Shown here piece by piece: positions 127 to 14,275 of a DNA stretch of 36,460 bases. Every line of letters begins with the position of its first letter. The first letter of the stretch is position 1. The DNA comes from Deltaproteobacteria bacterium (GTDB taxonomy: Bacteria; Desulfobacterota; DSM-4660; Desulfatiglandales; Desulfatiglandaceae), in assembly GCA_019307945.1 (NCBI GenBank), contig JAFDIS010000059.1:1-36460 (forward strand), given 5' to 3'. Under the pieces are notes generated by a model. That model was not told where the DNA came from. It saw nothing but the letters and a program-made list of their open reading frames with translations, and ran no database searches. The translations under genes and the position numbers were made by a program.

Positions 127-203
127 GCGCCCATAGCTCAGCTGGATAGAGTGACGGACTACGAATCCGTAGGTCGCAAGTTCGAATCTTGCTGGGCGCG
201 CCA
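127..203 (+). tRNA. tRNA-Arg (anticodon ACG)
   Basis: The 77 bases fold as a full cloverleaf: acceptor GCGCCCA pairs with TGGGCGC, D stem GCTC/GAGT, anticodon stem ACGGA/TCCGT around loop CTACGAA (anticodon ACG, Arg), T stem GCAAG/CTTGC with loop TTCGAAT, discriminator G and an encoded CCA end. The 3' 45 bases are also the attachment core of the element that follows, so part of this functional tRNA is reconstituted by the integrated DNA. Confidence 0.96.
159..203 (+). repeat. attL core, 45-bp direct repeat inside tRNA-Arg
   Basis: This segment, from the first base of the anticodon loop through the CCA end, is identical to 14231-14275. The flanking bases differ on both sides (158 a versus 14230 t; 204 a versus 14276 g), which fixes the repeat at 45 bp. 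Duplication of a tRNA 3' end beside a tyrosine recombinase gene is the classic footprint of site-specific integration. Confidence 0.95.
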
Positions 204-220
204 AATAAAATCAAACACTT

Positions 221-246
221 AGGCCACTCACAAGGTGGCCTTTTTC
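221..246 (+). terminator. Element-supplied terminator for tRNA-Arg
   Basis: AGGCCAC and GTGGCCT form a 7-bp stem with a 7-nt loop, followed by a T run. It lies 17 nt beyond the tRNA CCA end, within the integrated DNA, and replaces the original chromosomal terminator that now sits beyond attR (14285-14321). Confidence 0.8.
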
Positions 247-297
247 TTTGCCTGAGAGGCCAGGGTGCGTATAGGGTGCATTTGGGCGCAAAAAAAA

Positions 298-1434
298 TTA
301 CTTACTCACCGCTTCCGAGTTCGGGGCCGTCTTGGAATCAAGCTCATCCACCTGGGACTTGTGGGACCCCGGCATCCAGTGAGTGTATATGTCCAAGGTA
401 ATCTTTACGCTACTATGCCCTAATTGCTTGGATACGTCTAGAATGTTGTGTCCTGCTTGGATTCTCAAAGTTGCGTATGTGTGCCGAAGGTCGTGAATCC
501 GGATCTTTCGTAGACCTGCTTTTTCCAGAGCCTTATGAAACACCCGATTCCTCACGTTGTTAATGTCAATGGGGTTACCCTCACGGTTGAAAAACAGGGT
601 TTGCGGGGGTTCGCCCCATCCCTTGGTAAGCGTAATCTTTTTCCGCCTTACAAGGTAGCGCTTGAGCACTTCGGCAAGCTCGGGGGACATATCCACACGC
701 CTTGACTTACCGCTCTTGGGGGTCAACACTTCCCCCGCTGAATACGCCCGCCGAACCTCGATGAATCGCCCATTGAAATCCAGGTCGCCGGGCTCAAGGG
801 CCTTGGCCTCGCCTAATCTCATTCCTGTTCTCAGAAGGGTCAAGAAAAGGGGGTAATACCATGCGTAATGTTTTCTGAGGGTCTCTTCAAGTTTTGCCTT
901 TTCCTCCCACGTTAGGGGGTTAACGTCAAACCCGACACGCTTATTCTTGATCAACCGCCCTGTCCCCAACGCAGGGTTGGCGGTTATGATCTCATCGTCC
1001 AGGGCCTCCCGAAAGATCGCCGACAGGTAGGACTTAAGATTTCGAACCGTAGAAGGACTAATCCCCTCTGACTGCTTTCGCGTAATGAAATCCTTGATGT
1101 CGCTTCGGGTGACCTCGTCCAGGCGCTTGCTCCCGAAGTACGGCAAAATATGCTTGTCCAACGCTCCACGATATGACCGTCTCGTAGTTGGCTTATGATT
1201 CATCGCAGAGTAAGTTTTCATGAACCGCTCGGCGTATTCCTTGAACGTCGGCACTGGTTTTTTCTCCTCGAACCCGAACGTCCCCAACTGTATCCGTGCC
1301 CGGATCTCGGAAGCCACCCTTTCAGCCGCGCGCCTGTCCCCCACCTTCCTGGAGGTTCGCTTCCCGTTCTGGGATATAAAAACCCACCAAGGCTGGCCTT
1401 TTCCTCTTACCTTTTGCCTGACCGTAACGCCCAT
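298..1434 (-). CDS. int: Tyrosine recombinase / phage-type integrase
   Basis: This protein of about 378 residues catalyses integration and excision of the element. It has an N-terminal arm-binding-like region, a SAM-like core-binding domain (about residues 65-150, TFKEYAERFM onward) and a C-terminal catalytic domain. Catalytic motifs are visible: the first Arg in LLRTGMRLGEAKAL, the HDLRHTYATL box (HxxR) and the nucleophile Tyr in LGHSSVKITLDIYTHW. ATG at 1434 is preferred because GAGGGG precedes it by 5 nt; a TTG one codon upstream is also open. The gene sits 95 bp from the attL core with its 3' end facing the tRNA, the usual orientation for tRNA-targeting integrases. No separate large serine recombinase or transposase is present in the element. 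Confidence 0.96.
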   Translation of the reverse strand: MGVTVRQKVRGKGQPWWVFISQNGKRTSRKVGDRRAAERVASEIRARIQLGTFGFEEKKPVPTFKEYAERFMKTYSAMNHKPTTRRSYRGALDKHILPYFGSKRLDEVTRSDIKDFITRKQSEGISPSTVRNLKSYLSAIFREALDDEIITANPALGTGRLIKNKRVGFDVNPLTWEEKAKLEETLRKHYAWYYPLFLTLLRTGMRLGEAKALEPGDLDFNGRFIEVRRAYSAGEVLTPKSGKSRRVDMSPELAEVLKRYLVRRKKITLTKGWGEPPQTLFFNREGNPIDINNVRNRVFHKALEKAGLRKIRIHDLRHTYATLRIQAGHNILDVSKQLGHSSVKITLDIYTHWMPGSHKSQVDELDSKTAPNSEAVSK

Positions 1435-1437
1435 CAA

Positions 1438-1680
1438 AGCCCCTCGCTTTCTCCCTGGTTTTGGTTTACCCCCGGGGCAGGGTGCCAGGGTCGCACCTTT
1501 TCGGCTCCGGATGCCTAGCCCCCGGGGGCGGGGTGTGGGTCCATTTTAGACCCCAACAGGGGTTCAATCAAGACAGGACCGCCCCCTAGCGTCGCCACTA
1601 GAGGAACCTTCAGCGTTCGTTTCTTTGATTCGTGTTGTCATTGTCCTGTGGTTTGGGGATTGCTTTTCGCGTAAGCAAAT
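1438..1680. promoter_or_regulatory. Structured GC-rich intergenic region upstream of int
   Basis: This gene-free stretch separates the divergent int and ribbon-helix-helix genes. It has several small inverted repeats: GGTGC/GCACC around 1481-1497, a perfect palindrome GCCCCCGGGGGC at 1518-1529, and GGGTC/GACCC at 1537-1553. These could be recombinase or excisionase binding sites or a leader for int. No clear -35/-10 pair can be named. Confidence 0.35.
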
Positions 1681-1682
1681 GT

Positions 1683-1704
1683 TATACTATGTTAACAAAG
1701 TATA
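1683..1704. promoter_or_regulatory. 22-bp near-perfect palindrome, probable operator
   Basis: The two arms read TATACT-n-TGTT and AACA-n-AGTATA around a GTTAAC centre. 20 of 22 positions obey dyad symmetry; the only break is one A/A pair. It lies about 37 bp upstream of the ribbon-helix-helix gene and overlaps the AT-rich sequence where its promoter must be. Autoregulation by that protein is the simplest inference. Confidence 0.6.
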
Positions 1705-1741
1705 CATTCAATGTCAACCGAAAATCTTGTATCATGGAGGT

Positions 1742-1891
1742 ATGGAATTGATAGCTATTAGAATTCCCGAAGAAATGAAGAAAAAACTTGAGGTCTTGGC
1801 AAGAGAAGACCACAGGTCCCTGTCAAACCTGGTCCGTCTTATCCTGATACAGTGGCTAGAGAAGCACGAAAAAGAGAGCGAAAACAAATAA
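1742..1891 (+). CDS. Small ribbon-helix-helix (CopG/MetJ/Arc-type) protein
   Basis: A 49-residue protein beginning MELIAIRIPEEMKKKLEVLA. The pattern fits a ribbon-helix-helix DNA-binding fold: a short N-terminal beta strand (ELIAIRIP), helix A (EEMKKKLEVLAREDH) and helix B after the RSLSNLV turn. Such proteins are usually dimeric repressors or antitoxins. The GGAGG at 1736-1740 is unusually close to the ATG (1 nt), so start efficiency or the exact start is uncertain; the frame stays open upstream but the upstream residues do not look like this fold. It overlaps the following nuclease gene by 40 nt in another frame and has a palindrome upstream, which suggests an autoregulated two-gene unit. 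An antitoxin role is possible, but no matching toxin is obvious. Confidence 0.75.
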   Translation: MELIAIRIPEEMKKKLEVLAREDHRSLSNLVRLILIQWLEKHEKESENK

Positions 1892-2358
1892 GTCGGGTCT
1901 GCTGGGTCTGGCTCACGTTTGTTCTAGGGATTGAGCTCCTTTCCTCACCGACTACCGCGTGTCAGTTTAAGGTGACACGAGTCTATGACGGGGACACGGT
2001 TCTTGCCCGGGCGAACGATCTAGTCATCAAGGTTCGGTTGGTTGGGATTGACGCTCCGGAAGTGTCGCACGGAAAGCGAAAACCCGGCCAACCATACGGA
2101 AGGAAGGCGCAGAAGTTTCTCGCATCGCTTGTATTGAACAAGACGGTTGAGATTCGAGCCTATGGCCTAGACCGTTATAACCGTGTCCTCGGGGTCCTGG
2201 TATTAAACGGAAGGGACATCAACCTTGAGATGATCAAGGCGGGCCTCGCGGAAGTCTACCGGGGAAGACCGTCCAGAGGGTTCAACGCAACTCCCTACCG
2301 CGAAGCAGAGGAACACGCGAAGAAAACAAGGACCGCCAGAAACAGGAGCGTCCGTTAA
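1852..2358 (+). CDS. Exported thermonuclease (SNase-like) family nuclease
   Basis: 168 residues from a GTG start. A basic N-terminus (REARKRERK) leads into a hydrophobic stretch (VCWVWLTFVLGIELL) ending at SSPTTAC, which looks like a secretion signal, possibly with a lipobox-like Cys. The mature part matches the staphylococcal nuclease fold: VTRVYDGDTV (Ca-binding Asp), VRLVGIDAPE (catalytic Arg and Glu) and LDRYNRVLG (second catalytic Arg). It should hydrolyse DNA or RNA outside the cytoplasm. The start lies within the preceding regulator gene (40-nt overlap) and lacks a convincing Shine-Dalgarno, so translational coupling is likely and the exact start is uncertain. As cargo it could degrade extracellular or incoming DNA; this is inference. 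Confidence 0.85.
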   Translation: MAREARKRERKQISRVCWVWLTFVLGIELLSSPTTACQFKVTRVYDGDTVLARANDLVIKVRLVGIDAPEVSHGKRKPGQPYGRKAQKFLASLVLNKTVEIRAYGLDRYNRVLGVLVLNGRDINLEMIKAGLAEVYRGRPSRGFNATPYREAEEHAKKTRTARNRSVR

Positions 2359-2561
2359 CAAACTCGTGCCTTTGGAGATCAAGACTCTACACCAGATGCA
2401 CTATTCAGGCTCTTCGCAACCGAAATCGTCCAAAAATGGTTCGTTGGGAATATCTGGTGGAGAAATGGTTTGATTTGCTACGTTTGGGTCGTAGGTGACA
2501 ATCTTATCAAGATAAGAAAGGGTATCAACGACCAAGTAGGCGTTATCATTTATTTTTCTAA
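2359..2561. other. Gene-free gap between convergent genes
   Basis: About 200 bp separates the nuclease gene (plus) and the Ntn hydrolase gene (minus), which converge here. I see no coding frame or clear intrinsic terminator. Base composition falls toward the AT-rich side, in line with the Ntn hydrolase gene having a different origin. Confidence 0.3.
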
Positions 2562-3299
2562 TCATTTTCTCTTGCCTTTCTTTGCGGGCTTTTTAAAGAA
2601 GAAATCCTTCATTTTTCCGTTTTGGTCTTCATTTTTAGTAACAATGGTCATTATTTCATCCTCTTCTAGTTCTTTATATCCATTCTTTACTGTAATTTGG
2701 GCCATCCGAATAGGCCCGCCAACTTTTGGGTCTTGAGTAGCAGTTTCTTGAATCAAAAAAGCGGCTAGACTTTTGATATGGGGCAACTTCATTTCAGGGT
2801 TGTAGAACCTGTGAATTAAGTACGTTGCGTATTGAGGTACCCCGGCTAACATGTGTCCGGATGTGCACAACTGAGGTGCAAAATCCAGATTAGATGAAAG
2901 CAGATAAATTTTTTTGTTTCCGTTGCCTCGCTTACCATATCCAGCAAGAATAAAAGTCATAGTTGGCCTTTGATCAACAATTGGTTGCCCGTGGGAGACA
3001 AAAGGTTTTTCACCAAACCATTCTTGAAATGTGGATCGGGAAAATTTAAAAAACTCTTGAACAATTTCCTCTATTCCAATGACGTCCTCCCCCTCTAACC
3101 TCTTTGTGAAAGAGTAAATAAGCTGGTTGTTCAACTCAGCCGAGCCTGCGGTTGCGATCCCACAGTATTTACTCAAACTGAAAATTTTTTTATGGACATC
3201 GTTAATCGCTGTCAAACCCCTTGGGTCACCTATGGTACCACGACTATCAGATGCAAGAATCAGACCGTCTTTCCCTTCAAGGGCAGCAATTAAAGTCAT
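2562..3299 (-). CDS. Proteasome-beta/HslV-like Ntn hydrolase
   Basis: 245 residues starting M-TLIAALEGKDGLILASDSR. Removing the initiator Met would expose a Thr nucleophile, as in self-compartmentalising proteasome-type peptidases. With that Thr as residue 1, Asp falls at position 17 (ASDSR), a conserved proteasome active-site residue; Lys 36/37 (HKKIF) is the likely counterpart of the catalytic Lys 33. GIATAGSAELNNQ matches the GTAGSxAD-type signature of the fold. The length is near that of proteasome subunits. No ATPase, HslU or second subunit lies nearby, so it would act alone or as a homo-oligomer. ATG 3299 is preferred over an upstream start because it puts Thr at position 2 and follows a G-rich stretch. 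The gene is markedly AT-richer than its neighbours, suggesting separate acquisition. Substrate unknown. Confidence 0.75.
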   Translation of the reverse strand: MTLIAALEGKDGLILASDSRGTIGDPRGLTAINDVHKKIFSLSKYCGIATAGSAELNNQLIYSFTKRLEGEDVIGIEEIVQEFFKFSRSTFQEWFGEKPFVSHGQPIVDQRPTMTFILAGYGKRGNGNKKIYLLSSNLDFAPQLCTSGHMLAGVPQYATYLIHRFYNPEMKLPHIKSLAAFLIQETATQDPKVGGPIRMAQITVKNGYKELEEDEIMTIVTKNEDQNGKMKDFFFKKPAKKGKRK

Positions 3300-3344
3300 A
3301 GCGTATCCCCCCCAGAACCAAAATGAGGTAATTTGAATAAACAA

Positions 3345-3925
3345 GACAAAATAGCTGGAAGTTTCTAGAAGTTGCGCATGTTTCGTTTTTGTAGAATTTC
3401 GGTTTCCTTCTTTCCGTCTGTGCAGTAAACTTTTAGGTGTCTATTGGTTGCCTATTTGACTATGAGATATTTTGCGTGGTCCGGTTACCTGCAGTGCCTA
3501 GGTGGCGGAATTTCATTTCTTTTGATCTGTCGATATACTGACACCACTACATATCTTTTTCTCATATAAATGATTGGAATGTGAGTCAATGAAAATCATT
3601 AGGGAGCCTTAATGGGCTGTATAAGTATACCACGCAGCGATGTATAATAATAGGTTCGCGCACCGCTGAATGGGCTTGAGCGATTTTTGGAGTACCCAGG
3701 CTAAGTTCCGGTTGGGTTTCTTATCAGCAGCAGCAGAACACCCCGCTTCGTTTCTCCCGTTACGGGATTTGTTTTCTTGGGCGACTTATCCCCTCTTCCG
3801 GTGGGGGATTAGGACGCCGCCAGAAGGCTATTCAATTTTTAAAGAACTACGCGGGAACAATATCAGACCCGCCTGCCATACTTGCGCCAATAACTCTCAC
3901 GCTTTCTTGCCGCCCTCCGCCTTTT
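3345..3925. other. Long gene-poor stretch in the cargo zone
   Basis: Nearly 600 bp without a convincing gene. The first half is AT-rich and must hold the promoter of the Ntn hydrolase gene. The second half has short inverted repeats, for example ATCCCC/GGGGAT around 3788-3808, and open frames without ribosome-binding sites. It may mark a site of earlier gene gain or loss. Confidence 0.3.
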
Positions 3926-4024
3926 CTAGTTTCGCGCTTCACTGAGTTTCGTATACGAACCCCGCCGCCTGACCTCGACAACTATCTCTTCACTGCGACG
4001 CTGAAACCTGCCTATAGCAGACAT
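3926..4024 (-). CDS. Possible 32-residue basic peptide
   Basis: An ATG frame begins 10 nt after the zinc-knuckle gene stops, with a weak GGTGAT upstream. The product MSAIGRFQRRSEEIVVEVRR (first 20 residues) is strongly charged. Position at the end of the minus-strand operon and tight spacing are the only support. It matches nothing I recognise. Confidence 0.25.
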   Translation of the reverse strand: MSAIGRFQRRSEEIVVEVRRRGSYTKLSEARN

Positions 4025-4034
4025 TAGATCACCA

Positions 4035-4451
4035 TTATTCACTCGGACGTACAATCCACCTTCTCCCCGCGGCAGCCGTTTTAGTTGGCTCTATGTGGCC
4101 TTTTTCTAGCAATACGGCCACAAAAACACTCTTGTCAACAACCGATATCCGATAGGCGAACAGAGGGCACAGGATAGCTGTACACTTTGAGACCTCGCGG
4201 ACGTTCCCCGCCATGCACCAGGCGCAGAAAACACGGATCACCCGGGCTCGCTCCTTGGCGTCCTGTTTGCCTGTGCCCATTCGGTATGAATGCAATGGGC
4301 AGTCCGTAAAAGTACAATTAGAGACCTCTACATATGACCACCCAGAGCAATTAAGACACCGCTCACGGATAGCCCTGCGCCGGTTCAAGTTCACAACTGT
4401 CGTTCCGTCTTTGCTTTGTATCTCAACAATCACAACCAATGCCCAAGCCAT
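4035..4451 (-). CDS. Tandem zinc-knuckle phage-type protein
   Basis: About 138 residues with two copies of the same module, each C-x2-C-x10-C-x4-C followed by PL-x-[SA]-YR: CLNC...NCTFTDCPLHSYR and CAWC...KCTAILCPLFAYR. The second copy lies about 41 residues after the first. Single-module relatives are common as small hypothetical genes in prophages (recollection of the family, not a search); the cysteines probably bind zinc. It is the last larger gene of the minus-strand packaging-side operon. The ATG at 4451 has no good Shine-Dalgarno, so a downstream GTG could be the true start. The role is unknown; a nucleic-acid-binding regulator is the natural guess. Confidence 0.65.
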   Translation of the reverse strand: MAWALVVIVEIQSKDGTTVVNLNRRRAIRERCLNCSGWSYVEVSNCTFTDCPLHSYRMGTGKQDAKERARVIRVFCAWCMAGNVREVSKCTAILCPLFAYRISVVDKSVFVAVLLEKGHIEPTKTAAAGRRWIVRPSE

Positions 4452-4608
4452 GAAAAAAGTTTTTGGGGCTGGCAGAGGCCCCGATGGGTTGCCGCCCCAG
4501 GTCAAAGGAGATCCCGCGCTTTTCGGGGATAATGTGCATGCGGGGCGCGGGACGCTCGGAGCACACGCTTGTATGCCCGCACACACTCCCCTTTCCCATT
4601 CCCCTTGG

Positions 4609-5103
4609 TTAATCGTCGTTCGGGGGGTTGCCGTACCTCACCTCCACCTCAACCGGTTCATCGCGAAAGGAAAGGTGCGGGTTTCTTATCCTACTCTCAC
4701 GATCCTGGTGAGATGAAACCCATAAAGAATCACCCTTCGCGTTTGTTGAAGGCGTGTCGCTTTTGTCATCCAGCACACCCTTGGGTAAATCGGGATTCAT
4801 CTGCGTCAGGCTCTTTGTCCGCTTCAGGCCTTCCCTCACCCGCCGCCCGGCTTCCTTGATCCGCTCCACGCTGTATGGGTCGTTTTGGTAGTCAACGGGG
4901 ATCCGTGCCAGCTCCGCACCTATCAAGTCGCCGTGTTCGCGAAGATCAGGGTTCTTGTCGAAAAACTGGCGTTCAGTCTGTGTAAGCATTTTCTGCAAAT
5001 GCAGCGCCTCAGTCCGGTTGATCATATCCGCAAGTTGGCGGTCGAGGATCGGGTCCGGCTGATTCATCATGCCTTCTGTCTCGCTGTAACTATCATCATT
5101 CAT
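4609..5103 (-). CDS. Unrecognised acidic/polar element protein (164 aa)
   Basis: Begins MNDDSYSETEGMMNQPD and is rich in Asp, Glu, Arg and Asn, with a helical middle (DRQLADMINRTEALHLQKML) and a disordered Ser/Asp-rich tail. No signal peptide or membrane segment. The start at 5103 overlaps the preceding stop by 8 nt and has GGAG 9 nt upstream, so it is translationally coupled to the gene before it. I do not recognise a family. Its place downstream of the terminase suggests a packaging, capsid-interaction or scaffold-like role, but nothing in the sequence proves this. Confidence 0.6.
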   Translation of the reverse strand: MNDDSYSETEGMMNQPDPILDRQLADMINRTEALHLQKMLTQTERQFFDKNPDLREHGDLIGAELARIPVDYQNDPYSVERIKEAGRRVREGLKRTKSLTQMNPDLPKGVLDDKSDTPSTNAKGDSLWVSSHQDRESRIRNPHLSFRDEPVEVEVRYGNPPNDD

Positions 5104-5692
5104 CGCCTTCTTCTCCTTCCCGTTGAATCTCCTCACGCCTCAGTCTCGGTCCTTCGCGAATCATATCACGGAATTTACGCTCCTCTGATAACCTAGATCG
5201 CCGTTGCTTCGTAACCACCTCGTTCCTAAGTCCCAGGTAGTCAGTGGCTTTTTCTGCCGCAATGACAAGGTTCTCCTCGAACTTCCCGCGTGGGTTCTCT
5301 GCCTGCGCCCGCTGAAACATTGAAAACAGGACTGGCTCCTTGCCCTGGAGATGGGGGGCGTTGTTTTTAATGTACTCTGCCGCATATTCGCGATAGTATG
5401 CGCCCTTGTCTGTATCACCTTTCATGACATCCCTGTACGTGGCTGCCATGGGGCGTAATATGTTCTGTCGAAATTCCGCGTCGTCAATCAGCTCGTCCAG
5501 GTCGTCATACTCCGACCCATCATCCGACGCGATGGAGTCCAGCTCTTCCTCTGACAAGCCCGCCAGTTCAAGTTTGCGTTTGAGTTCTTCATACTTTCTG
5601 TTCTCCAGCCTCTCTTTTACGTCCCGCTCTAGTTCATCGTCCGGTACAACGCCCGAGACTTGCATGTCCGGGTGTATAATCGCATCTTCCAT
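5096..5692 (-). CDS. Unrecognised acidic helical protein (198 aa)
   Basis: Starts MEDAIIHPDMQVSGVVPDDE. Residues from about 20 to 70 are highly charged and probably coiled (ERDVKERLENRKYEELKRK, then an acidic DDGSEYDDLDELIDD run); the C-terminus is Arg/Glu-rich. The composition resembles scaffolding or head-morphogenesis accessory proteins, but no motif allows a call. GGAGG lies about 12 nt before the ATG at 5692. It overlaps the next gene by 8 nt and follows the 75-residue gene by 4 nt, so it belongs to the same transcription unit. Confidence 0.6.
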   Translation of the reverse strand: MEDAIIHPDMQVSGVVPDDELERDVKERLENRKYEELKRKLELAGLSEEELDSIASDDGSEYDDLDELIDDAEFRQNILRPMAATYRDVMKGDTDKGAYYREYAAEYIKNNAPHLQGKEPVLFSMFQRAQAENPRGKFEENLVIAAEKATDYLGLRNEVVTKQRRSRLSEERKFRDMIREGPRLRREEIQREGEEGDE

Positions 5693-5696
5693 GGTT

Positions 5697-5924
5697 TTAA
5701 TTATCCTCCGTATCCGTGGGCACCGTAGTTCGAACGTCATCCGCGCTCTTATACTCCGTAATCTTAATGCCCTTGAGATTGTTTTTCATGTTCTGACCAG
5801 CAGGTGCACGCCCAGGAAAGGGCTTTACGCCCCCCACCTTCACGGCCCCGGGAACGCCCTGGGATCCAGGTTTAACTTTCACTGCGCCACTACCTCTTTT
5901 CTTACCTTTCTTGATCATTTCCAT
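5697..5924 (-). CDS. Small basic Gly/Pro-rich protein (75 aa)
   Basis: The N-terminal half is Lys/Gly/Pro/Val-rich (MEMIKKGKKRGSGAVKVKPG) and the C-terminal half is more ordinary (ITEYKSADDVRTTVPTD). It looks intrinsically disordered and nucleic-acid-binding by composition only. The gene sits in a tight minus-strand run: 6 nt after the preceding gene and 4 nt before the next. Function unknown. Confidence 0.55.
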   Translation of the reverse strand: MEMIKKGKKRGSGAVKVKPGSQGVPGAVKVGGVKPFPGRAPAGQNMKNNLKGIKITEYKSADDVRTTVPTDTEDN

Positions 5925-5930
5925 TTGCTC

Positions 5931-6128
5931 TTACCTCCGTCTATTTTGTTTCCACCACGCCTCACCAATACTCTGAACCGGCCCAAAGTCGTCCGGGCTC
6001 ACATTCGGCGTGTTTCCTGTGTTGTATGTAAACACCTCGTCAACTCGTCTCACCTTGAAACTCGCCGCCGGTCGCCAAGACTTTGGAATCCGACAGGTCG
6101 GACTCCGGAATTCCTCATCGGCAGTCAT
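5931..6128 (-). CDS. Small unrecognised element protein (65 aa)
   Basis: Starts MTADEEFRSPTCRIPKSWRP; the C-terminus is GEAWWKQNRRR. GGAGG about 10 nt upstream selects ATG 6128 rather than an ATG cluster further upstream that would overlap the previous gene. One Cys, no clear motif. It lies in the operon between the 238-residue protein and the basic 75-residue protein. Function unknown. Confidence 0.55.
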   Translation of the reverse strand: MTADEEFRSPTCRIPKSWRPAASFKVRRVDEVFTYNTGNTPNVSPDDFGPVQSIGEAWWKQNRRR

Positions 6129-6147
6129 TTGTGATTCACCTCCTTCC

Positions 6148-6864
6148 TTAATGATATGTGTTAACTTCCGGGATCCCGCCATCATCAACTTTTGGCAACC
6201 TCAGCCTGATACCAGTCCCCGCATACGCCGCGAAAGAGAGAGCCTTCAACGCGCTCGGGTTTTGACTCAGAAGGTGACGACACTCGCTGTTGATTCGCAA
6301 TAGCCCTGATGCAATCTGAGAGCGTAACAACCCATTGAGATAATCTTCACCACCGCCCCGGCCGTTCCCTATCGGCAAGGGAAGAATCACCGGGGCTTCA
6401 ACCTCGGGGTCCCTCAACCAATTGCGGCGACGCTGCCTGCCCACGCGCCGCCGGTAAATCTCTGAAAGCAGGTTGGTAGACTCCCCCGCAAGGTCACGGT
6501 CCCCAGGGGCGCACCAGAACACAGAGACAGAGTATTTATCACTGTATTCAACAACGGCCTCCAAAAGGGAGCGGTAGTTCCGCTCAAGGTGCTCGTCCAC
6601 AACTTCGATCAGCGCGTCGTCGCTATACGTCCAGGGGCCAGGGTTGATACCACTGGTAATGCTGCGAAACGGTTCAAGGTCGGTTGGAATATCAACCCCA
6701 CCGCTTACCTCGTGCTCTGTCGGTCGGTAGGTTTCGCCTGCGATGAGAAAATAGCCTTCCGGAACACCGCGAGGAAACTCCAGGGCCCCAAAAAGCGGCC
6801 GATAATAAAGCCGATCACTCACCACCACGCGATCCGGTTGCAATTTCACTTTGACGTCAAGCAT
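6148..6864 (-). CDS. Unrecognised protein translationally coupled to terminase (238 aa)
   Basis: The ATG at 6864 overlaps the terminase stop (shared ATGCTTGA), with a G-rich Shine-Dalgarno inside the terminase gene. The N-terminus is strand-rich (LDVKVKLQPDRVVVSDRLYY), the middle has a likely alpha/beta region (ALIEVVDEHLERNYRSLLEA, YSVSVFWCAPGDRDLAGES), and a Gly-rich linker precedes a helical C-terminus. The size and place fit a partner of the packaging enzyme. A portal is normally about twice this length, so this is not a conventional portal. No family recognised. Confidence 0.65.
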   Translation of the reverse strand: MLDVKVKLQPDRVVVSDRLYYRPLFGALEFPRGVPEGYFLIAGETYRPTEHEVSGGVDIPTDLEPFRSITSGINPGPWTYSDDALIEVVDEHLERNYRSLLEAVVEYSDKYSVSVFWCAPGDRDLAGESTNLLSEIYRRRVGRQRRRNWLRDPEVEAPVILPLPIGNGRGGGEDYLNGLLRSQIASGLLRINSECRHLLSQNPSALKALSFAAYAGTGIRLRLPKVDDGGIPEVNTYH

Positions 6865-8302
6865 GACCCGCCCCCTCTTCGAAACGGAATAAATTGTCCC
6901 CCGTCAGATCCCAGAAAAACGAGTCCGTCGTCCCGCACTTGAAAGCCGCAAGGGCAATACAAACCGCAAAGTCGTCGTGACGGCCGGCAAGTCTCGCATG
7001 ACCGATTTGAATGTTTCCTGATGGGGTGACCCGGGCCTCTAAGCCCTTCAGCTCCCCAATGCTGTCGGGGTGGTCAAGAAGCTCAATGCTCCCCTCCATA
7101 ATGCGATGCTTGAGGGTTGAAAAGATTTCCCGCTTGAATCCCGTGCTAAACGGACTCTCAAGAAACGTAATCCCTCGCTCTCGAAAACCCTGCCTGACAG
7201 GTTCCGAACAATACTGATCACCGTGAACAAGGCCGCAGTGATATACTCGCAGCGTTCGGCAAATCTCATCTAACGTAGACGCCAAATTAACCGGCTCCTT
7301 CTTCGTTCCGTGCCAGGCTGAGATATAATCAAAGATGACTCGTCCGTCGTCGTCGCGGTGACAAATGCCGAATGTGAAAGCGTCGCTTTTAAATGCCACA
7401 TCCACTGCGGCCGTATAAACAAACTTGCCGTGATAAGGGAGTATCTTGCGCTCAGGAATTACACACGCATCAACAGATTCAGATGGCAAAAAATCACTGA
7501 TGGAATCGGAAAATTCCGCCAGGTATTCCCTCTTGTACGAGTCAGGGTCCCGGCGTTCTTCCTGGCGTAAAAAACTGTTCGAAACGGTCGGGTTCATCAC
7601 CTTGGTCGGCGCACGCCAGACGAGCACCGGCGCATTTGAATCTGCGTAGTAGTTCTTGAAATCCTCCCATAATACGCCCTGCTTCCAGAATGGAGTTGAG
7701 ATCTTCACCAGCTTACTATTCGCGAACGTAGCCTGCGCCGGGCGGATCGCCTCCAAGATCTGCTTGTCCACGTTCTGTCCCTCCACGCGAAGGAAAGCGG
7801 CCTCATCAACTATCGCAAGAGGGATCGAAAATCCGCGAAGCGTACGATACGAACAGGGATAAGACCCGATCACTATGTTGTTCCGGAAGTGAATCTCCTC
7901 CGCATACGTGGCTGCAACCATGCTGGATAAAAGACGCGATGATTCCACCTTGCCGCGAACGTAAGAGAGAATAAGCCCCGCCTGCTTTTTGTTTACGCTG
8001 ATAATAATTATATACGCCTTCTCCCCCATACTCAGATGCCGCTCGTGGCCGCCCTGCAACGCCTCAAACAACGCGACGTTGCTTGCAATTCGATCACTCT
8101 TGCCAGACCTACGACCGCAAATTAGCGTGGCCTCCCTGTACGGCCGCGCGTGGTACTCCTCCAACCCCGTGCACCGCTTGTAAACGTCCAGCTCACGCTT
8201 GCTGAGTTCAAGACCATAAAACGCCTTCAGGGCGGCCGTCTGCGCTATGGATAACTTTTGCCCGATCAGGTTTTTATCCCGTATGAAGTCAATAATGTTC
8301 AC
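6857..8302 (-). CDS. terL: Terminase large subunit-like packaging ATPase/nuclease
   Basis: 481 residues from a GTG start. The N-terminal ATPase has Walker A at LICGRRSGKSDRIA (about residue 63) and Walker B at IPLAIVDEAAF (about residue 166), followed by a coupling motif region (VKISTPFWKQG). The C-terminal RNase H-like nuclease shows its acidic residues in AAVDVAFKSDAFTF, GLVHGDQYCSEPV and LAGRHDDFAVCIALA. Length and domain order are those of phage large terminases, which translocate DNA into proheads and cut it. The upstream gene looks like a small terminase. The protein is complete and shows no disabling change at visible motifs, which argues for selection. With no capsid or portal in the element it would need a helper phage or the neighbouring unknown proteins. 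Confidence 0.9.
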   Translation of the reverse strand: MNIIDFIRDKNLIGQKLSIAQTAALKAFYGLELSKRELDVYKRCTGLEEYHARPYREATLICGRRSGKSDRIASNVALFEALQGGHERHLSMGEKAYIIIISVNKKQAGLILSYVRGKVESSRLLSSMVAATYAEEIHFRNNIVIGSYPCSYRTLRGFSIPLAIVDEAAFLRVEGQNVDKQILEAIRPAQATFANSKLVKISTPFWKQGVLWEDFKNYYADSNAPVLVWRAPTKVMNPTVSNSFLRQEERRDPDSYKREYLAEFSDSISDFLPSESVDACVIPERKILPYHGKFVYTAAVDVAFKSDAFTFGICHRDDDGRVIFDYISAWHGTKKEPVNLASTLDEICRTLRVYHCGLVHGDQYCSEPVRQGFRERGITFLESPFSTGFKREIFSTLKHRIMEGSIELLDHPDSIGELKGLEARVTPSGNIQIGHARLAGRHDDFAVCIALAAFKCGTTDSFFWDLTGDNLFRFEEGAGHA

Positions 8303-8317
8303 TACCGCAAACCTTCC

Positions 8318-8380
8318 CTAGTCCACGTCCCCGTTCACCAGTGGGCCTGTATACGTTGTTTCAGAAAAATGTTGTGTCAT
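8318..8380 (-). CDS. Possible 20-residue leader ORF before terL
   Basis: An ATG frame encoding MTQHFSETTYTGPLVNGDVD ends 16 nt before the terL GTG. It has no Shine-Dalgarno and may be chance, but its position would suit a leader peptide coupled to terL. Very low confidence. Confidence 0.15.
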   Translation of the reverse strand: MTQHFSETTYTGPLVNGDVD

Positions 8381-8706
8381 TGTGCGTGAGGCCTAACCCA
8401 TAAAATGACCATGTCGAATTCCCGATTTCGGGTCCGGGGGGTCCCCACGGCCTTCCTGGAACGTGTTTTTTCTGCCTGCCTGGATGCTCCCCCCTTGCTC
8501 CTGGCCCTGGTGTTGCCTGGTCCTTCCTGCGCCCGTCGTCCCGGCCCCGGGTTCCTGGCCCTGTCCACTGACACGACGCGAAAGAAGAAGGGGGCGCCAC
8601 CGTCTCGCATGTTGTCTGCATCGTGCGCCGGCACCTGGTCCCGGTCCTGACCATTCATTGATCTTGCATCGTCTCCTGCGTCCTGCGTGTGATGGACGTG
8701 GGACAT
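8377..8706 (-). CDS. Possible basic hydrophilic protein (109 aa)
   Basis: A frame from ATG 8706 (MSHVHHTQDAGDDARS start) fills the gap between the two terminase genes. The product is rich in Arg, Gly, Pro and Asp with repeated GPG-like segments. The region is GC-rich and locally repetitive (GGCCAGGA/GGACCAGG-type words), so two other long frames stay open by composition alone. No Shine-Dalgarno is seen. If real it is a disordered basic protein. Confidence 0.25.
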   Translation of the reverse strand: MSHVHHTQDAGDDARSMNGQDRDQVPAHDADNMRDGGAPFFFRVVSVDRARNPGPGRRAQEGPGNTRARSKGGASRQAEKTRSRKAVGTPRTRNREFDMVILWVRPHAQ

Positions 8707-8790
8707 GCTGTTTTGTTTCGTCACATACGCGCCCAAAACCCGCCCATGTTGCGACTTTTGGCCGGACGCATACTTCTTGACACAGGGGGC

Positions 8791-9393
8791 TCATTCCTCG
8801 CCATCCTCCGGGGCCGTGGCGTCGTCACACGCACACACACAGGGCCTTTGTGAACACTCGGAACACCCACACCCGGGAACCGCACCCGATCCGTCTTTGT
8901 TCGCACAGGCTTTGCCTGAAGGAGCAACCTCAACGTCAATAGGTCCCGCGTCCTTCTCCTGCGCCTTGTCGCGTTTTGCAGGCTTCAGGCTCGCAATGTA
9001 CTTTTCGTAATCAATGCCCTGTGGGTCTGCTTGCTTGCCTAAATCCTGCAGGGCACGGAGGTTGAGACGTAGACTATTACTCCAGGCCAAATACTCCCTT
9101 CCCAATGCGGGAAGCAATGAGCCCTCCTTGGTGACGATGCTCTTCTGCCTCAACGCCCACTCGGCCATGCGAGATAGCACCGCGATTTGTTCGCAAACAT
9201 GGTCTAAGAGAATACCTTGAGACGTGTTTGGCCGTCCGCCCATGTCTTCCAACAACCCCCTGCGAGCCTCGGTGACGTATTTGCCCGTTCTGGTTCGTAA
9301 ATCAATCCAGGATTCTCCCCGGGCGATCGCCTTTACGAGGGCTTTCCCGCCGTGTTTTTGACGGTTATGCCGAACTTCTCTTTCCCTTTTCAT
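8791..9393 (-). CDS. terS: Probable terminase small subunit (P27-like)
   Basis: 200 residues beginning MKREREVRHNRQKHGGKALV. The central helical region (DHVCEQIAVLSRMAEWALRQ ... LGREYLAWSNSLRLNLRALQ) resembles the P27-type small terminase pattern of a tandem helical block with SLLPALGREYLAW; this is a pattern judgement, not a database match. The C-terminus is Cys-rich (CGCSECSQRPCVCAC), a possible metal knot not usual for the family. ATG 9393 is preferred over GTG 9423 because its first base is the last base of the upstream stop (TGATG) with GAGG 8 nt upstream. Small terminases recognise pac/cos DNA and would determine what this element packages. Confidence 0.55.
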   Translation of the reverse strand: MKREREVRHNRQKHGGKALVKAIARGESWIDLRTRTGKYVTEARRGLLEDMGGRPNTSQGILLDHVCEQIAVLSRMAEWALRQKSIVTKEGSLLPALGREYLAWSNSLRLNLRALQDLGKQADPQGIDYEKYIASLKPAKRDKAQEKDAGPIDVEVAPSGKACANKDGSGAVPGCGCSECSQRPCVCACDDATAPEDGEE

Positions 9394-9593
9394 CACATGA
9401 ACCTCAAGTTTTGCTCGATCCACTCGTCTAGCTCATGTCTATCCAACCAAATCTTTGACCTAGGCCCCCGCTGAATACACCGTAACTCCTGTTGGTACAG
9501 GAGCTCGCGCACGCTATCGACAGACCGACCCAGGTACACGGCGGCTTCCTTTAAAGTCAACAACCTCGGACGCACTCCATTTTTCTTGTCCAA
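9393..9593 (-). CDS. AlpA/excisionase-type HTH regulator 1
   Basis: 66 residues from a TTG start chosen because GGAGG lies 6 nt before it; the GTG at 9611 lies upstream of that site. The core LLTLKEAAVYLGRSVDSVREL ... WLDRHELDEWIEQN is the winged helix-turn-helix of excisionase/AlpA-like proteins (Helix_turn_helix_17 type). Such proteins bend DNA for excision or activate satellite late genes, as P4-like AlpA does. It directly precedes the small terminase gene (TGATG overlap), so it may be its activator or simply co-expressed. Confidence 0.75.
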   Translation of the reverse strand: MDKKNGVRPRLLTLKEAAVYLGRSVDSVRELLYQQELRCIQRGPRSKIWLDRHELDEWIEQNLRFM

Positions 9594-9688
9594 TTTGCAC
9601 CTCCCCGGCACCCAAATACCGTGTCCGTTTTATTTCTGCTGTTATTTTAGCCTGTTACCTTGCCTGACCTTCGGACTGATGATCCGAT

Positions 9689-9934
9689 TTAGCCCTTCAG
9701 GGCGTCCATTACCTCATCTACAATGCCGTTGATATCCTGCCTGGTTGTGATCCTAAAGTTTTCCACCCAAGCGTCAAATTCATCTTTTCTGACCAGAATT
9801 TTCCCATCCAGCTTGAAGGCGGGAAGACTTCCGCGGTTGATGTATCCACGGAGACTCGACACGGACAGGCTTGCATACTCAGCAAGCTTTCTCAGGTCTA
9901 GATATCCGTCCGTCTGCCTTCTTCCGCCTTTCAT
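9689..9934 (-). CDS. AlpA/excisionase-type HTH regulator 2
   Basis: 81 residues beginning MKGGRRQTDGYLDLRKLAEY. The segment LRKLAEYASLSVSSLRGYINRG-LPAFKLDGKILVRKDEFDAWV is a clear winged helix-turn-helix of the excisionase class: recognition helix around SVSSLRGYI, wing KLDGKILVR. The C-terminal TRQDINGIVDEVMDALKG adds a short helix. It lies between the iteron region and the terminase module with a palindrome (9973-9988) about 40 bp upstream, and is the best candidate for the switch controlling excision or packaging genes. Confidence 0.8.
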   Translation of the reverse strand: MKGGRRQTDGYLDLRKLAEYASLSVSSLRGYINRGSLPAFKLDGKILVRKDEFDAWVENFRITTRQDINGIVDEVMDALKG

Positions 9935-9972
9935 GGTTTAATTGATCCACCCCCTAACACGAGGAATACTGC

Positions 9973-9988
9973 GTACGTTAAAACGTAC
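9973..9988. promoter_or_regulatory. 16-bp inverted repeat upstream of HTH regulator 2
   Basis: Arms GTACGTT and AACGTAC are separated by AA. It lies about 40 bp upstream of the regulator start, in the expected promoter zone, so it is a likely operator, perhaps autoregulatory. Confidence 0.5.
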
Positions 9989-9989
9989 C

Positions 9990-10258
9990 TCAAAGCGCAC
10001 AACCTATTCTCACCACCTCAACCCTTCCTGGATCACAATGCATTGTAACCATTGAGAATCTTTTGCCTCTCTGTGCCATTGACAGGCTGCTAGACCAATG
10101 TTTTCCGCCTTCCCGCAAGCGCCAGGGGAATGCTGGGTTTTGGCGGTATTTCTCGTCCCAAATTCTTTCAGTTGCATTCCCTGGCAACGCCGCGCCCCCT
10201 CTTGGGAGAGAACGCGAAAGGGGAGAGACGCCCAGCACCCGCCGCACCGTGAATTTGT
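9990..10258. other. Non-coding region between regulator and origin
   Basis: Frames here run on into the iterons and look spurious. The segment includes a perfect 12-bp palindrome, ACAATGCATTGT, at 10035-10046, a possible second operator. No RNA gene recognised. Confidence 0.3.
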
Positions 10259-10263
10259 AAACC

Positions 10264-10292: not shown

Positions 10293-10300
10293 AAGTCCCC

Positions 10301-10579: not shown

Positions 10580-10586
10580 ATGGTCG

Positions 10587-12785
10587 TCATTTTTCCTCCC
10601 AGTCGATTTTCAAGCCGATATGGCCCTCGAAAGCCGCCCGACATTGTTCTAGGTCAGGGATTTCATATCCCCACTTTCTCACGTCGCCGATGACCGGCCG
10701 GCCCCTTTTCACGCCCGCGGGCCAAAGGGTTTTCAACTCGCGAATGAACACTTTATTGGTTAAGGGATGCCGATTTTTCACCGTTTCGCAAAATTCTATG
10801 TAGCGGTTATACAATTCGTCCGTGGGGATCCACTCACCGAAGATTTCCCCGTCGCCGTCCGTTAATGCCTCAACCCAAAATTTCCCGACAGTCCCCATTG
10901 TGCGCAAAACTTGATCAACGAGAGCGTCCGTCTTGGGGAAGTTGTTGGGGTCAAAGCCCGTGAGGTCATAATTCTGAAGCAGGTGGAGAAGGGCACCCAC
11001 GCCGTCGTTCGACATTTCGTCGAAAATGGCCTTGAAATATTGACGGTTCCCCACTTTTTCGCCGCTCACGTCGATCACGCAAAACCGACGTTCCAGAGGT
11101 CCGGCAGGCACAACCCAATTGTTATTCGACGCAATGATAAAATTTGCGTGGTTGCGAACCTGAAACAGGTCTTTACCTTTAAGTTCAATATTGACCACGT
11201 CCTCGGTGATAAGACCCTTCAGCACGCCTTCCGCCTGCTTATCCCCAGCCCAAAACCCCTCGTCGACGTACACAAGGAGCGCGTCTTTCAAGGCACTATT
11301 GAACCGGCCGACCACATGGTTTTGATTTGTCACGTGGATAAAATGCTTCCCGAATATCCGGCCGAAGCCCTGAACGAAACAGCCCTTGCCTGCCCCTCGC
11401 GGTCCCCGAAGGACAAGTGCGACTTCACTGCGTCGTTTTCCCAGGTGCTGGACCTTCCAAGCCATCCACTCAACAACGTACTTAAACAGCTCTTCATTCC
11501 TCCGGGCGATTACATCATGAATGTGGCACAGATATTTTTCACACCTGCCCTTCGCGTCCGGTTTGACTGCCAGGCCCCTGAATAGGTTGTAGGCCCCAGA
11601 GATTTCTTTTCGCGAAGGCTCGAACACCAGCCCGTTTTCGTATGTGCGCCTGTGTTTATTTTCAATCCACAGCTTGGCCACGGGGGCGGGCTCGGTAACT
11701 ATCTCCCCGTTTCTCTCCTTTTCAACAGGGATCTTTCTGTTGGCGTATCGCGTCTTGAAGTCGGCAACGGTCGATAAGGTGATATCAGGCCGACCATGGA
11801 TCGGGTCTGCAATTTCATTGAGAATACAGCATCGGCCGCCAACCATGACCACGGCATGCTTGGAGTTAAGCTCCTCGATTGCTTTTTCGACGGCGTCCTT
11901 TTTCTTTTGCGTTTTTGGCTTGGGATTTCTCACTGTTTCTGCAAGGTTCTTTACTACCGCATTCGCCCCTTCTAAGATGGCCAGATCGTTGAAGTCTGTT
12001 GGGCGCGTGTCCGTGTTTTTAAACCTCGGCACGGCCAACTGTCCATCCACCGCCCACGCCGCTTCACGGGCCGCAGCCAAACCCGGATTGCCTTCCGTCC
12101 ACTGGTCGTTGTCAGCACAAATCGTGATTTCCGCCTCGGGGTGCTTCTCGCGCACAACCTGTGCAACAGATTTTAGATTGCCCGCGCTGAATGCTACATA
12201 GATTGTGCCACCCGTGGACTTGCGAATAGTTAGGCCCGTAGCAAACCCTTCACAAACGAATATTCCGCCCGCCTCGTCACCCAGAATCCTAAAGAAATTT
12301 CCGGAGACCTTTGAGCCCGCAAGAAACTTTTTCTCACCACTAGCCGAAATTCGCTGGATTCCCGTGATATCCCCTTTTGCATTAGTGACAGGCACAAGTA
12401 GCGTCGCGTTTAGCTGCTTCAGCCCGGGGCAGGGTTCCACCTTCTTGGTTAGTAAATATGGATGGTCTTTACAGGCAGGTTTTGCCCGCTGTAAAATCGC
12501 CTGAAAATCCTTGGTCGGTTTTTGGATATTATTGGTATGCTTGACCTTCGCCACACCCTGACCGCTGCCACCCTCAAAAAACAAATCTGCCAAGGTCAAC
12601 TCCATGGCCTTGGTAACCTCCCACGGCGTACACCCGGCGAAGCAATTGAGAAGGATCCTCCCATCTGCGCCCGTGCCGATCGACAAACTGGCATTGTGAT
12701 CGTCATGCGCGGGGCATCGAGCAACCCAGCCCGTTCCCGATCTTCTTACGCCATCCAGCCGTGCTAAAAATTCCCCAATATCCAC
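10587..12785 (-). CDS. Primase-helicase (zinc-Toprim primase fused to SF3/D5-like helicase)
   Basis: 732 residues from GTG, the replication protein of the element. Residues about 20-55 hold a CHC2-like zinc site (CPAHDDH ... CFAGC). A Toprim primase follows (about 140-260): the Glu in FVCEGFATGL and the acidic pair in ICADND. The C-terminal half is a D5/SF3-type ATPase: Walker A LRGPRGAGKG (about residue 465), Walker B LLVYVDEGFWAG, and an ASNNNWVVPAG sensor-like segment. The architecture is that of P4-alpha-like and phage/plasmid primases that both prime and unwind. It lies next to the iteron array, so origin recognition by this protein or a partner is likely. A strong terminator 30 nt upstream of the start suggests its expression is gated. 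Confidence 0.92.
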   Translation of the reverse strand: MDIGEFLARLDGVRRSGTGWVARCPAHDDHNASLSIGTGADGRILLNCFAGCTPWEVTKAMELTLADLFFEGGSGQGVAKVKHTNNIQKPTKDFQAILQRAKPACKDHPYLLTKKVEPCPGLKQLNATLLVPVTNAKGDITGIQRISASGEKKFLAGSKVSGNFFRILGDEAGGIFVCEGFATGLTIRKSTGGTIYVAFSAGNLKSVAQVVREKHPEAEITICADNDQWTEGNPGLAAAREAAWAVDGQLAVPRFKNTDTRPTDFNDLAILEGANAVVKNLAETVRNPKPKTQKKKDAVEKAIEELNSKHAVVMVGGRCCILNEIADPIHGRPDITLSTVADFKTRYANRKIPVEKERNGEIVTEPAPVAKLWIENKHRRTYENGLVFEPSRKEISGAYNLFRGLAVKPDAKGRCEKYLCHIHDVIARRNEELFKYVVEWMAWKVQHLGKRRSEVALVLRGPRGAGKGCFVQGFGRIFGKHFIHVTNQNHVVGRFNSALKDALLVYVDEGFWAGDKQAEGVLKGLITEDVVNIELKGKDLFQVRNHANFIIASNNNWVVPAGPLERRFCVIDVSGEKVGNRQYFKAIFDEMSNDGVGALLHLLQNYDLTGFDPNNFPKTDALVDQVLRTMGTVGKFWVEALTDGDGEIFGEWIPTDELYNRYIEFCETVKNRHPLTNKVFIRELKTLWPAGVKRGRPVIGDVRKWGYEIPDLEQCRAAFEGHIGLKIDWEEK

Positions 12786-12814
12786 CGACGTTCGGCTCCT
12801 TCATTTCTTTGCAC

Positions 12815-12903: not shown

Positions 12904-13107
12904 TTACCGTGTTACTTCTAGCTGGTTCTCAATATGTTTATTCATTAAAATTTTACCAGCTTTGGTTTGTTTGATAATATATTTTCTCCCGCTGTATTGA
13001 TCGATCAAAACCAACGGATATTGTGCCACGGTGATTTCGCAAACCCCGTCAAAGATATTAAATCCAGTTTGTATGGTTTTAGCTAGTTTTGTGGTATTAT
13101 TTTGCAT
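12904..13107 (-). CDS. Small unrecognised protein (67 aa)
   Basis: Begins MQNNTTKLAKTIQTGFNIFD; the rest (EITVAQYPLVLIDQYSGRKYIIKQTKAGKI in part) suggests a small beta-rich fold. GGGGAAAG immediately precedes ATG 13107. It overlaps the end of the upstream HTH gene by 11 nt, so it is co-translated. AT-richer than the HTH gene. Its stop is followed by the attenuator-like hairpins before the primase gene, so it could take part in that control; this is speculation. Confidence 0.6.
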   Translation of the reverse strand: MQNNTTKLAKTIQTGFNIFDGVCEITVAQYPLVLIDQYSGRKYIIKQTKAGKILMNKHIENQLEVTR

Positions 13108-13879
13108 TCTTTCCCCATTTTCCTTTGTTTACAAACTTTACGTGCCACTTTTCAGCGTCATAGACAGCCTCCCGGGCCAGGCCCGCCACCGCTTCAAGAT
13201 GGTCCCGCGCGGCGATGAAATCCCCACGCTCGATTTTTCCCGACTCCCAAAGTCTCACAAGGTGTCCTAACGCTTCTGAGCACCGATTTTCTATCGCGGC
13301 CCTGCGCTCCCACGCCTCCCACTTCACTTTAGCTTCGGGGGTGGCGTGCGGACCTACCGAATTGCTTTTCACCCAGGTCAGGAGAGCATCCACTTCGGCC
13401 CACAATGCTTCCTTTTCCGGGGTGGGTTTCAGGAGGTCTTGGTCGCGCTCGATTTGGAAACGGAAGAACACCTCCGCCCGCAGGTCAGCGCGGTATCCGG
13501 CGATTTCCCGGAAAATGACCCGCGCCGCCTCAGGCCCCAAGCGCTTTATGCGGTCAAGCGTCCAAGTAACGACCTGTGGCGCGAATCTCGCGGAAAACTC
13601 GGCCTTGAAATTCTCGATGTCTTTTTGAACGGATTTCTGATTTTTCCACCGCCAGACCGTGGCCGCATCCACGCCGAGAAGAGCAGCAACTTCTTTTTGG
13701 GAAATTGCAATTTCACCGCCATTTATCGATTGAAGCAGAGCGAAAACCCGCCGTCGGCGGGCGGGCCTCCCCAAAGAACTTTCCTCGGTTTGGTCGGCCA
13801 AAGCTCTGACGAACCCCCGGAGCATTGGGCGGTTCCTCCGCGGATCGATTGCGTTCGCTAGTTGGACTGAATTCGTCAT
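13097..13879 (-). CDS. HTH protein, TerS-like DNA-binding domain, first gene of the element operon
   Basis: 260 residues. A helix-turn-helix at about 58-85 (ISQKEVAALLGVDAATVWRW) followed by a helical stretch (TWTLDRIKRLGPEAARVIFR) recalls the DNA-binding half of phBC6A51-type small terminases. The C-terminal 150 residues are helical, with WEAWERRAAIENRCSEALGH and AARDHLEAVAGLAREAV. It may be a second small-terminase homologue that redirects packaging, an origin-binding protein or a master regulator. It is the promoter-proximal gene of the minus-strand operon, with -35 and -10 boxes about 30-60 bp upstream, and overlaps the next gene by 11 nt. Confidence 0.65.
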   Translation of the reverse strand: MTNSVQLANAIDPRRNRPMLRGFVRALADQTEESSLGRPARRRRVFALLQSINGGEIAISQKEVAALLGVDAATVWRWKNQKSVQKDIENFKAEFSARFAPQVVTWTLDRIKRLGPEAARVIFREIAGYRADLRAEVFFRFQIERDQDLLKPTPEKEALWAEVDALLTWVKSNSVGPHATPEAKVKWEAWERRAAIENRCSEALGHLVRLWESGKIERGDFIAARDHLEAVAGLAREAVYDAEKWHVKFVNKGKWGKNAK

Positions 13880-14230: not shown

Positions 14231-14275
14231 CTACGAATCCGTAGGTCGCAAGTTCGAATCTTGCTGGGCGCGCCA
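14231..14275 (+). repeat. attR core, 45-bp copy of tRNA-Arg 3' end
   Basis: Exact copy of 159-203. Only the tRNA portion from the anticodon loop to CCA is present, so this copy is not a functional tRNA. Confidence 0.95.

What the first reader, a model, noticed from the sequence alone, without database searches (positions are those of the whole stretch)
2562..3299. Stand-alone proteasome-beta-like Ntn hydrolase carried as cargo
Met-Thr start, Asp at mature position 17, a downstream Lys pair and the GIATAGSA signature fit a proteasome/HslV-type N-terminal Thr hydrolase, yet no ATPase partner is present. The gene is AT-rich and sits in the int-proximal zone where satellites and islands keep accessory, often anti-phage, genes. 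A proteasome-like effector in such a spot is unusual.
Basis: partly seen in the sequence, partly recalled or inferred. Interest (0 to 1): 0.72.

Follow-up and report, generated by a model that had tools for sequence, protein, structure and literature searches.

The report
Proteasome-like protease carried by mobile elements
A small mobile DNA element inserted in a bacterial tRNA gene carries a lone, apparently intact relative of the proteasome's cutting subunit, and close relatives sit in phages, another inserted element and an Asgard archaeon, so it looks like travelling cargo whose job is still unknown.

Summary
The gene at 2562-3299 (minus strand) encodes a 245-aa proteasome beta-type Ntn protein. 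Pfam PF00227 is over cut-off. The AlphaFold2 model (pTM 0.85) superposes on T. acidophilum beta at Z 25.9, residue 2 opposite Thr1. Thr2, Asp18, Lys38 and Gly52 are invariant in 7 of 7 close and 15 of 15 wider-set sequences. It is not HslV; the genome has its own HslV elsewhere. It is cargo: an exact 45-nt repeat bounds a 14,072-bp element in tRNA-Arg, and the gene lies beside the integrase in an AT-rich pocket. It belongs to a rare subfamily of seven found here: this element, a second integrase/tRNA-linked copy (Dormiibacterota), four Caudoviricetes contigs and a Lokiarchaeon. Phage-borne proteasome homologs were reported in 2021 (PMC8665760), so the kind is known. An anti-phage role is plausible but unproven: no PADLOC match, and the defence-like genes near relatives were picked by eye. 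Best mechanism: Met removal exposes Thr; a homo-oligomer cleaves unfolded or specific proteins without an AAA+ partner and serves the mobile element or its host in conflict with other phages.

The parts
2562..3299 (-). Proteasome beta-like Ntn hydrolase, 245 aa (P0001); putative nucleophile Thr2, with Asp18, Lys38 and Gly52
127..203 (+). tRNA-Arg (acg), integration target
159..203 (+). left attachment repeat (3' end of tRNA), 45 nt
   Evidence: 100% identical copies
14231..14275 (+). right attachment repeat, 45 nt; element 159-14230 is 14,072 bp
298..1437 (-). tyrosine integrase
   Evidence: PF00589 1.1e-27, phrog_1 1.1e-77
1742..1891 (+). ribbon-helix-helix protein (ORF listed from 1625)
   Evidence: PF01402 1.4e-6
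1852..2358 (+). staphylococcal-nuclease-like protein, second gene of the integrase-proximal zone
   Evidence: PF00565 2e-25
4035..6864 (-). small ORFs without assigned function, between cargo zone and TerL
   Evidence: no family over cut-off
6857..8302 (-). terminase large subunit-like
   Evidence: phrog_2 1e-23
10587..12785 (-). primase-helicase
   Evidence: PF19263, Toprim; phrog_2249 9.5e-65
13097..13879 (-). helix-turn-helix protein at the far end of the element
   Evidence: weak hits

Best explanation
Shown by computation: a proteasome beta-fold protein with intact Thr-Asp-Lys triad and oxyanion Gly, encoded as probably separately acquired cargo beside the integrase of a 14,072-bp tRNA-Arg-integrated element, and belonging to a rare subfamily found mainly on phages and integrating elements. 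Inferred mechanism: the initiator Met is removed by methionine aminopeptidase, freeing Thr as N-terminal nucleophile with no propeptide. The subunits self-assemble into a homo-oligomeric ring or open ring; helices H3/H4 carry no insertion and a C-terminal helix is present, as in Anbu-like homologs. The complex cleaves unfolded or specific protein substrates without an AAA+ partner. Inferred purpose: an accessory (moron-like) gene that helps the element or its host in conflict with other phages (defence or superinfection control) rather than a part of virion building.
For: Fold. Invariant Thr2/Asp18/Lys38/Gly52: 7 of 7 subfamily members (A9) and 15 of 15 rows of A6 (5 subfamily, 10 wider relatives). 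Asp190 aligns with the Asp of the proteasome 'RDS.SGG' motif. Element boundaries. Composition pocket. Mobility: L052 gene lies about 0.5 kb from an integrase that adjoins tRNA-Pro; phage contigs L063, L064, L113, L114; viral L064 and bacterial L052 are sisters at 100/99. In the phylum sample of 395 genomes the own one alone has a close copy (next best 28% identity). Cargo slot: sister element L078 has, between integrase and TerL, an AAA ATPase hitting PADLOC NsnB 1e-36 and AriA 2.5e-23.
Against: No PADLOC family for the protein. No conserved partner gene. Defence-like neighbours were picked by eye (hits in 5 of 8; 1 of 10 control proteins). Four of seven members come from a viral collection, so the mobile share is inflated. 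The Lokiarchaeal copy has no integrase or phage gene that I found within 10 kb. The Ser169-type residue of the proteasome is not kept (Val193 in all seven). Oligomerisation and activity untested; [quoted passage not shown]
Confidence: 0.55

Rival explanations
1. Counter-defence or host-takeover protease: the phage/element uses it to degrade a host defence, restriction or regulatory protein during infection or induction.
For: Present in 4 Caudoviricetes contigs; in L113 it follows a DNA methyltransferase and a small ORF on the same strand, a place that could hold anti-restriction genes.
Against: In L064 and L114 it lies on the strand opposite to the neighbouring structural genes, more like a separately expressed gene; it also occurs in integrated elements and an archaeal chromosome.
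Confidence: 0.2
2. Head-maturation or packaging protease, acting near terminase.
For: In L063, L064 and L113 the gene lies on the 5' side of TerS-TerL, within about 0.6-2.3 kb.
Against: L114 has a separate head-maturation-protease-like gene (phrog_80 1.6e-4); MW202777, a phage with related TerL, has its own prohead protease and no proteasome-like annotation in the stretch shown; the window element has no recognised capsid gene; the L064 copy is on the opposite strand.
Confidence: 0.1
3. General protein-quality or peptide-turnover enzyme (BPH/Anbu-like), moved by chance with mobile DNA and of no special use in phage conflict.
For: Known stand-alone homologs lack AAA+ partners and co-occur with HslV (PMC8665760, PMC5777263); the own genome has HslV; distant relatives lie in chromosomal contexts such as L025.
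Against: Sporadic, patchy distribution across phyla and viruses argues for a benefit linked to mobility.
Confidence: 0.2
4. A ligase or other Ntn amide chemistry rather than a protease, as in connectase.
For: Connectase shows the fold can become a protein ligase (PMC8665760).
Against: No two-helix insertion like that of connectase between the early strands in the model; nearest folds are 20S beta subunits.
Confidence: 0.05

Closest known systems
20S proteasome beta subunit (archaeal/actinobacterial)
   Same: Fold (Z 25.9, 195 residues, rmsd 1.9), Thr1/Asp17/Lys33/Gly47 positions, Asp166-like Asp190
   Different: About 20% identity; 29 bits against a cut-off of 224 for the archaeal beta model; no alpha subunit or ATPase in the element; no propeptide; Val at the Ser169 place
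HslV
   Same: Small proteasome-family peptidase
   Different: HslV models not matched, while the own HslV scores 272 bits; no HslU-like partner in the element
Anbu
   Same: Similar length, C-terminal helix, no AAA+ partner (PMC5666114, PMC8665760); fold Z 24.1
   Different: No sequence match shown; no Anbu model tested
Proteasome homologs of Fuchs, Alva and Lupas 2021 (WPH, PMI-4, PPH, AAH, PHD and others; PMC8665760)
   Same: Stand-alone homologs in prokaryotes and phages, no AAA+ partner, no known function; WPH is said to have a coiled-coil C-terminus and to occur in archaea and bacteria
   Different: Their alignments are not held here, so whether this subfamily equals one of the 22 is open; the families their Table 1 marks for phages do not include WPH
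phrog_5990 (phage proteins of about 400 aa)
   Same: Same N-terminal motif; seen in Providencia, Stenotrophomonas, Streptococcus (phage and satellite) and Porphyromonas phage records
   Different: Long insertions; distant clade

Membership tests
Proteasome-like Ntn hydrolase family | Ntn alpha-beta-beta-alpha fold of the proteasome subunit | tested here: met
   Model pTM 0.85; Z 25.9 to 6bdf_1
Proteasome-like Ntn hydrolase family | Thr1/Ser1, Asp17, Lys33 and oxyanion Gly47 | tested here: met
   Thr2, Asp18, Lys38, Gly52 invariant in 15 of 15 (A6) and 7 of 7 (A9)
Proteasome-like Ntn hydrolase family | Pfam PF00227 over curated cut-off | tested here: met
   28.7 bits, cut-off 22.4
Proteasome-like Ntn hydrolase family | Thr-dependent hydrolysis | not testable with these tools
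   needs purified protein
20S proteasome beta (equivalog) | NCBIfam equivalog cut-off | tested here: not met
   TIGR03634 29 of 224 bits, TIGR03690 22.1 of 191.9
HslV | NCBIfam HslV models | tested here: not met
   No hit up to E 1; positive control own HslV 272 bits
HslV | adjacent HslU | tested here: not met
   17 element ORFs scanned, no AAA+ unfoldase
Anbu | membership by sequence clustering | tested here: inconclusive
   Fold match Z 24.1; no Anbu sequence model was tested
One of the 22 homologs of PMC8665760 (e.g. WPH) | cluster membership | not testable with these tools
   alignments are in an external data set
Known anti-phage defence family | PADLOC-DB model match | tested here: not met
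   0 families up to E 1
Integrated satellite-like element | integrase, att direct repeats at a tRNA gene | tested here: met
Integrated satellite-like element | dependence on a helper phage | not testable with these tools
   no helper identified

The most novel reading that the evidence does not exclude
A stand-alone proteasome-type protease serves as a dedicated effector in phage conflict, shared between phages, phage-satellite-like elements and an Asgard archaeon: an ATP-independent proteolytic defence or superinfection-control system with no model in PADLOC-DB 2.0.0.
Probability: 0.27. Interest if true: 0.85.

Novelty: new member of a known kind. Interest (0 to 1): 0.5.

Why it matters
Over twenty families of stand-alone proteasome homologs have no known function (PMC8665760). 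A subfamily that keeps a perfect active site while moving between phages, integrating elements and archaea gives a small, clonable case in which a function (defence, counter-defence or element biology) can be tested directly, with an active-site Thr mutant as control.

Tried and rejected
HslV identity: rejected with the own HslV as positive control. Core virion protease: disfavoured. Pseudoenzyme: disfavoured by the invariant active site in far-diverged members. tblastn of P0001 against phages and plasmids: no match; of the L025 homolog against phages: none; of the Lokiarchaeal homolog against both: none; only the wider relative L043 found 13 phage and 8 plasmid records. Viral-contig scans that gave no subfamily member: 0 of 2 stretches; 1 of 85, a wider relative; 0 of 41. 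L067 and L068 are chance pattern hits, seen from their ORF lists. Empty-site search with a neighbouring gene: 16 of 46 family genomes matched, but no tRNA-Arg(acg) lay in the matched stretches, so no empty site was shown. No second copy of the tRNA-Pro 3' end in L052; its contig ends 3.6 kb upstream of the gene. Custom integrase/TerL profiles on loci L025-L064: beyond loci used to build them, hits only in the two Streptococcus satellites; since the profiles contain subfamily loci and four of seven members come from a viral collection, I claim no enrichment statistic. Rfam: only the tRNA. Promoter scan: no excess over shuffles.

Full report
The feature. The ORF at 2562-3299, minus strand, encodes 245 aa beginning MTLIAALEGKDGLILASDSRGT. 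It passes the Pfam cut-off for PF00227 Proteasome (28.7 against 22.4 bits) and weakly matches archaeal and bacterial 20S beta models (29 and 22 bits, far below the equivalog cut-offs) and two phage families (phrog_5990, phrog_1040). It has no PADLOC match. The HslV models are silent on it but score 272 bits on the genome's own HslV, which lies on another contig.

Structure and active site. AlphaFold2 on an alignment of 15 sequences gave pLDDT 86.5, pTM 0.85. Foldseek's best PDB hits are 20S beta subunits, E 1.7e-12; VIA-align 2 gives Z 25.9, rmsd 1.9 over 195 residues to T. acidophilum beta, model residue 2 being the first aligned residue opposite chain residue 1. Anbu chains score Z 24.1 and 23.6, close behind. 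Thr2, Asp18, Lys38 and Gly52 are invariant in 15 of 15 sequences of A6 and 7 of 7 of A9. In the set of 14 with more distant homologs (A1) position 2 is Thr in 10, Ser in 3 and Gly in 1, and position 38 is Lys in 11 and Arg in 3, so the nucleophile is not universal in far relatives. Thr1/Asp17/Lys33 and Gly47 as triad and oxyanion residue are from PMC8665760 (read: outline with abstract, end of introduction and methods, results, discussion). Asp190 aligns with the Asp of the proteasome RDS.SGG motif, while the Ser before GG is Val here; that these are Asp166 and Ser169 is recalled.

The element. An exact 45-nt repeat, 159-203 (3' end of tRNA-Arg acg) and 14231-14275, bounds 14,072 bp. Inside are an integrase (298-1437), an RHH and a nuclease-like gene, the proteasome-like gene, small unassigned ORFs, a terminase large subunit, two HTH_17 proteins and a primase-helicase. 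I recognised no capsid or tail gene, hence 'satellite-like'; a helper is not identified. The proteasome-like gene is 40.7% G+C and its zone (2359-4034) 43.0%, against 52.3% for the rest of the element and 61.5% for the chromosome, which suggests separate acquisition.

Relatives. In the class sample 2 of 85 genomes matched at E 1e-3, the own included; in the phylum sample 16 of 395, the own included, the next best at 28% identity. One genome-contig scan gave 11 loci of 323 stretches: a Lokiarchaeon (47%) and a Dormiibacterota MAG (39%) are close, nine are wider relatives (22-28%). Eight viral-contig scans gave four contigs with close relatives: L063, L064, L113, L114, and one wider relative, L051. 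The seven close members share DSR[GA]T.GDPR and ETA[ST]QD.KVGG.

Contexts of the seven. Window: beside the integrase. L052: 3627-4394, then integrase 4936-6129, then tRNA-Pro 6221-6296, the same integrase-proximal layout. L063: on the 5' side of ParB-like, radical-SAM-like, TerS-like, TerL and a Mu-type portal, same strand. L064: next to a small ORF, then TerS-like, TerL and portal-like genes, but on the opposite strand. L113: integrase in the contig, methyltransferase and a small ORF upstream, TerS-like, TerL and portal downstream, same strand. L114: plus strand amid mostly minus-strand tail and head genes, with a separate head-maturation-protease-like gene. L053: Lokiarchaeal chromosome near ESCRT/Vps4-like genes (by eye) on one side and a DpnII-MboI-type REase-like gene on the other. 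TerS, radical-SAM, and portal or ParB names without a family hit are my reading of position and sequence. The tree joins viral L064 with bacterial L052 at 100/99 (32 rows, the seven less L113 and L114, which were found later).

Sister elements. TerL relatives occur in 8 of 395 phylum genomes, the own included; I fetched 7 of the 8 other places. None of the 7 has the proteasome-like gene at E 0.01. Five of 7 show a tRNA gene in the fetched stretch; integrase-like ORFs were found by comparison in three and read by eye in others. In L078, between integrase and TerL, sits an AAA ATPase hitting PADLOC NsnB 1e-36 and AriA 2.5e-23. This fits a cargo slot that can hold defence-like genes, in one example. 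Of 8 neighbour proteins picked by eye 5 hit PADLOC, against 1 of 10 control flank proteins; the choice was not blind.

Function. Known: proteasome homologs occur in phages (the 2021 paper names PPH and AAH in its text and marks CPH, PMI-4 and DAH too in its table, as I read its columns), with no AAA+ partner and no suggested function; the word 'defense' does not occur in its main text. BPH forms a double ring with Thr or Ser as nucleophile and Anbu an open ring, both without a known partner unfoldase (abstracts and one section each of PMC5777263 and PMC5666114). A 2022 phage paper names a BPH-like gene (PMC8953757, one passage). My literature searches listed no paper on a proteasome-like anti-phage protein; the library lacks most subscription journals. 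I therefore commit to an ATP-independent, self-assembling Thr protease used as accessory cargo in phage conflict: identity and cargo status are near certain, peptidase activity likely (about 0.7), a conflict role about 0.5, of which defence is the larger part.

Novelty. The fold and the general idea of phage-borne proteasome homologs are known; the subfamily, its presence in a tRNA-integrated satellite-like element and in an Asgard archaeon, and the intact active site across these are additions. Whether it equals the published WPH cluster could not be tested here.

Noticed in passing
window 159-14230; L078-L084: A group of tRNA-linked elements with integrase, TerL-like terminase and sometimes a primase, but no capsid gene recognised in the window's copy; could be a little-described satellite type.
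   Followed up: partly
window 15529-16218 (-): ORF looks like a chimera: residues 2-118 and 117-229 match two separate neighbouring places in several relatives; by eye QueE-like and QueC-like halves. A deletion or an assembly fault.
   Followed up: no
L045, L046, L047, L048, L049, L050: Proteasome-like ~400-aa proteins (phrog_5990, unknown function; five of six scanned) annotated as hypothetical in Streptococcus satellites and in phages, in four of them beside lysis genes or at a record end.
   Followed up: partly
L025 9378-10127 and 10879-11604 (-): Two proteasome-like paralogs near each other in one genome, the second with changed active-site positions (Asn for Asp, Arg for Lys).
   Followed up: no
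window 1852-2358: Staphylococcal-nuclease-like protein with an apparent signal or lipobox segment (by eye) in the same integrase-proximal zone; PADLOC C3a212 3.8e-16.
   Followed up: no
window 10480-10585: Short repeats of ATGGGACAT units just beside the end of the primase gene.
   Followed up: no
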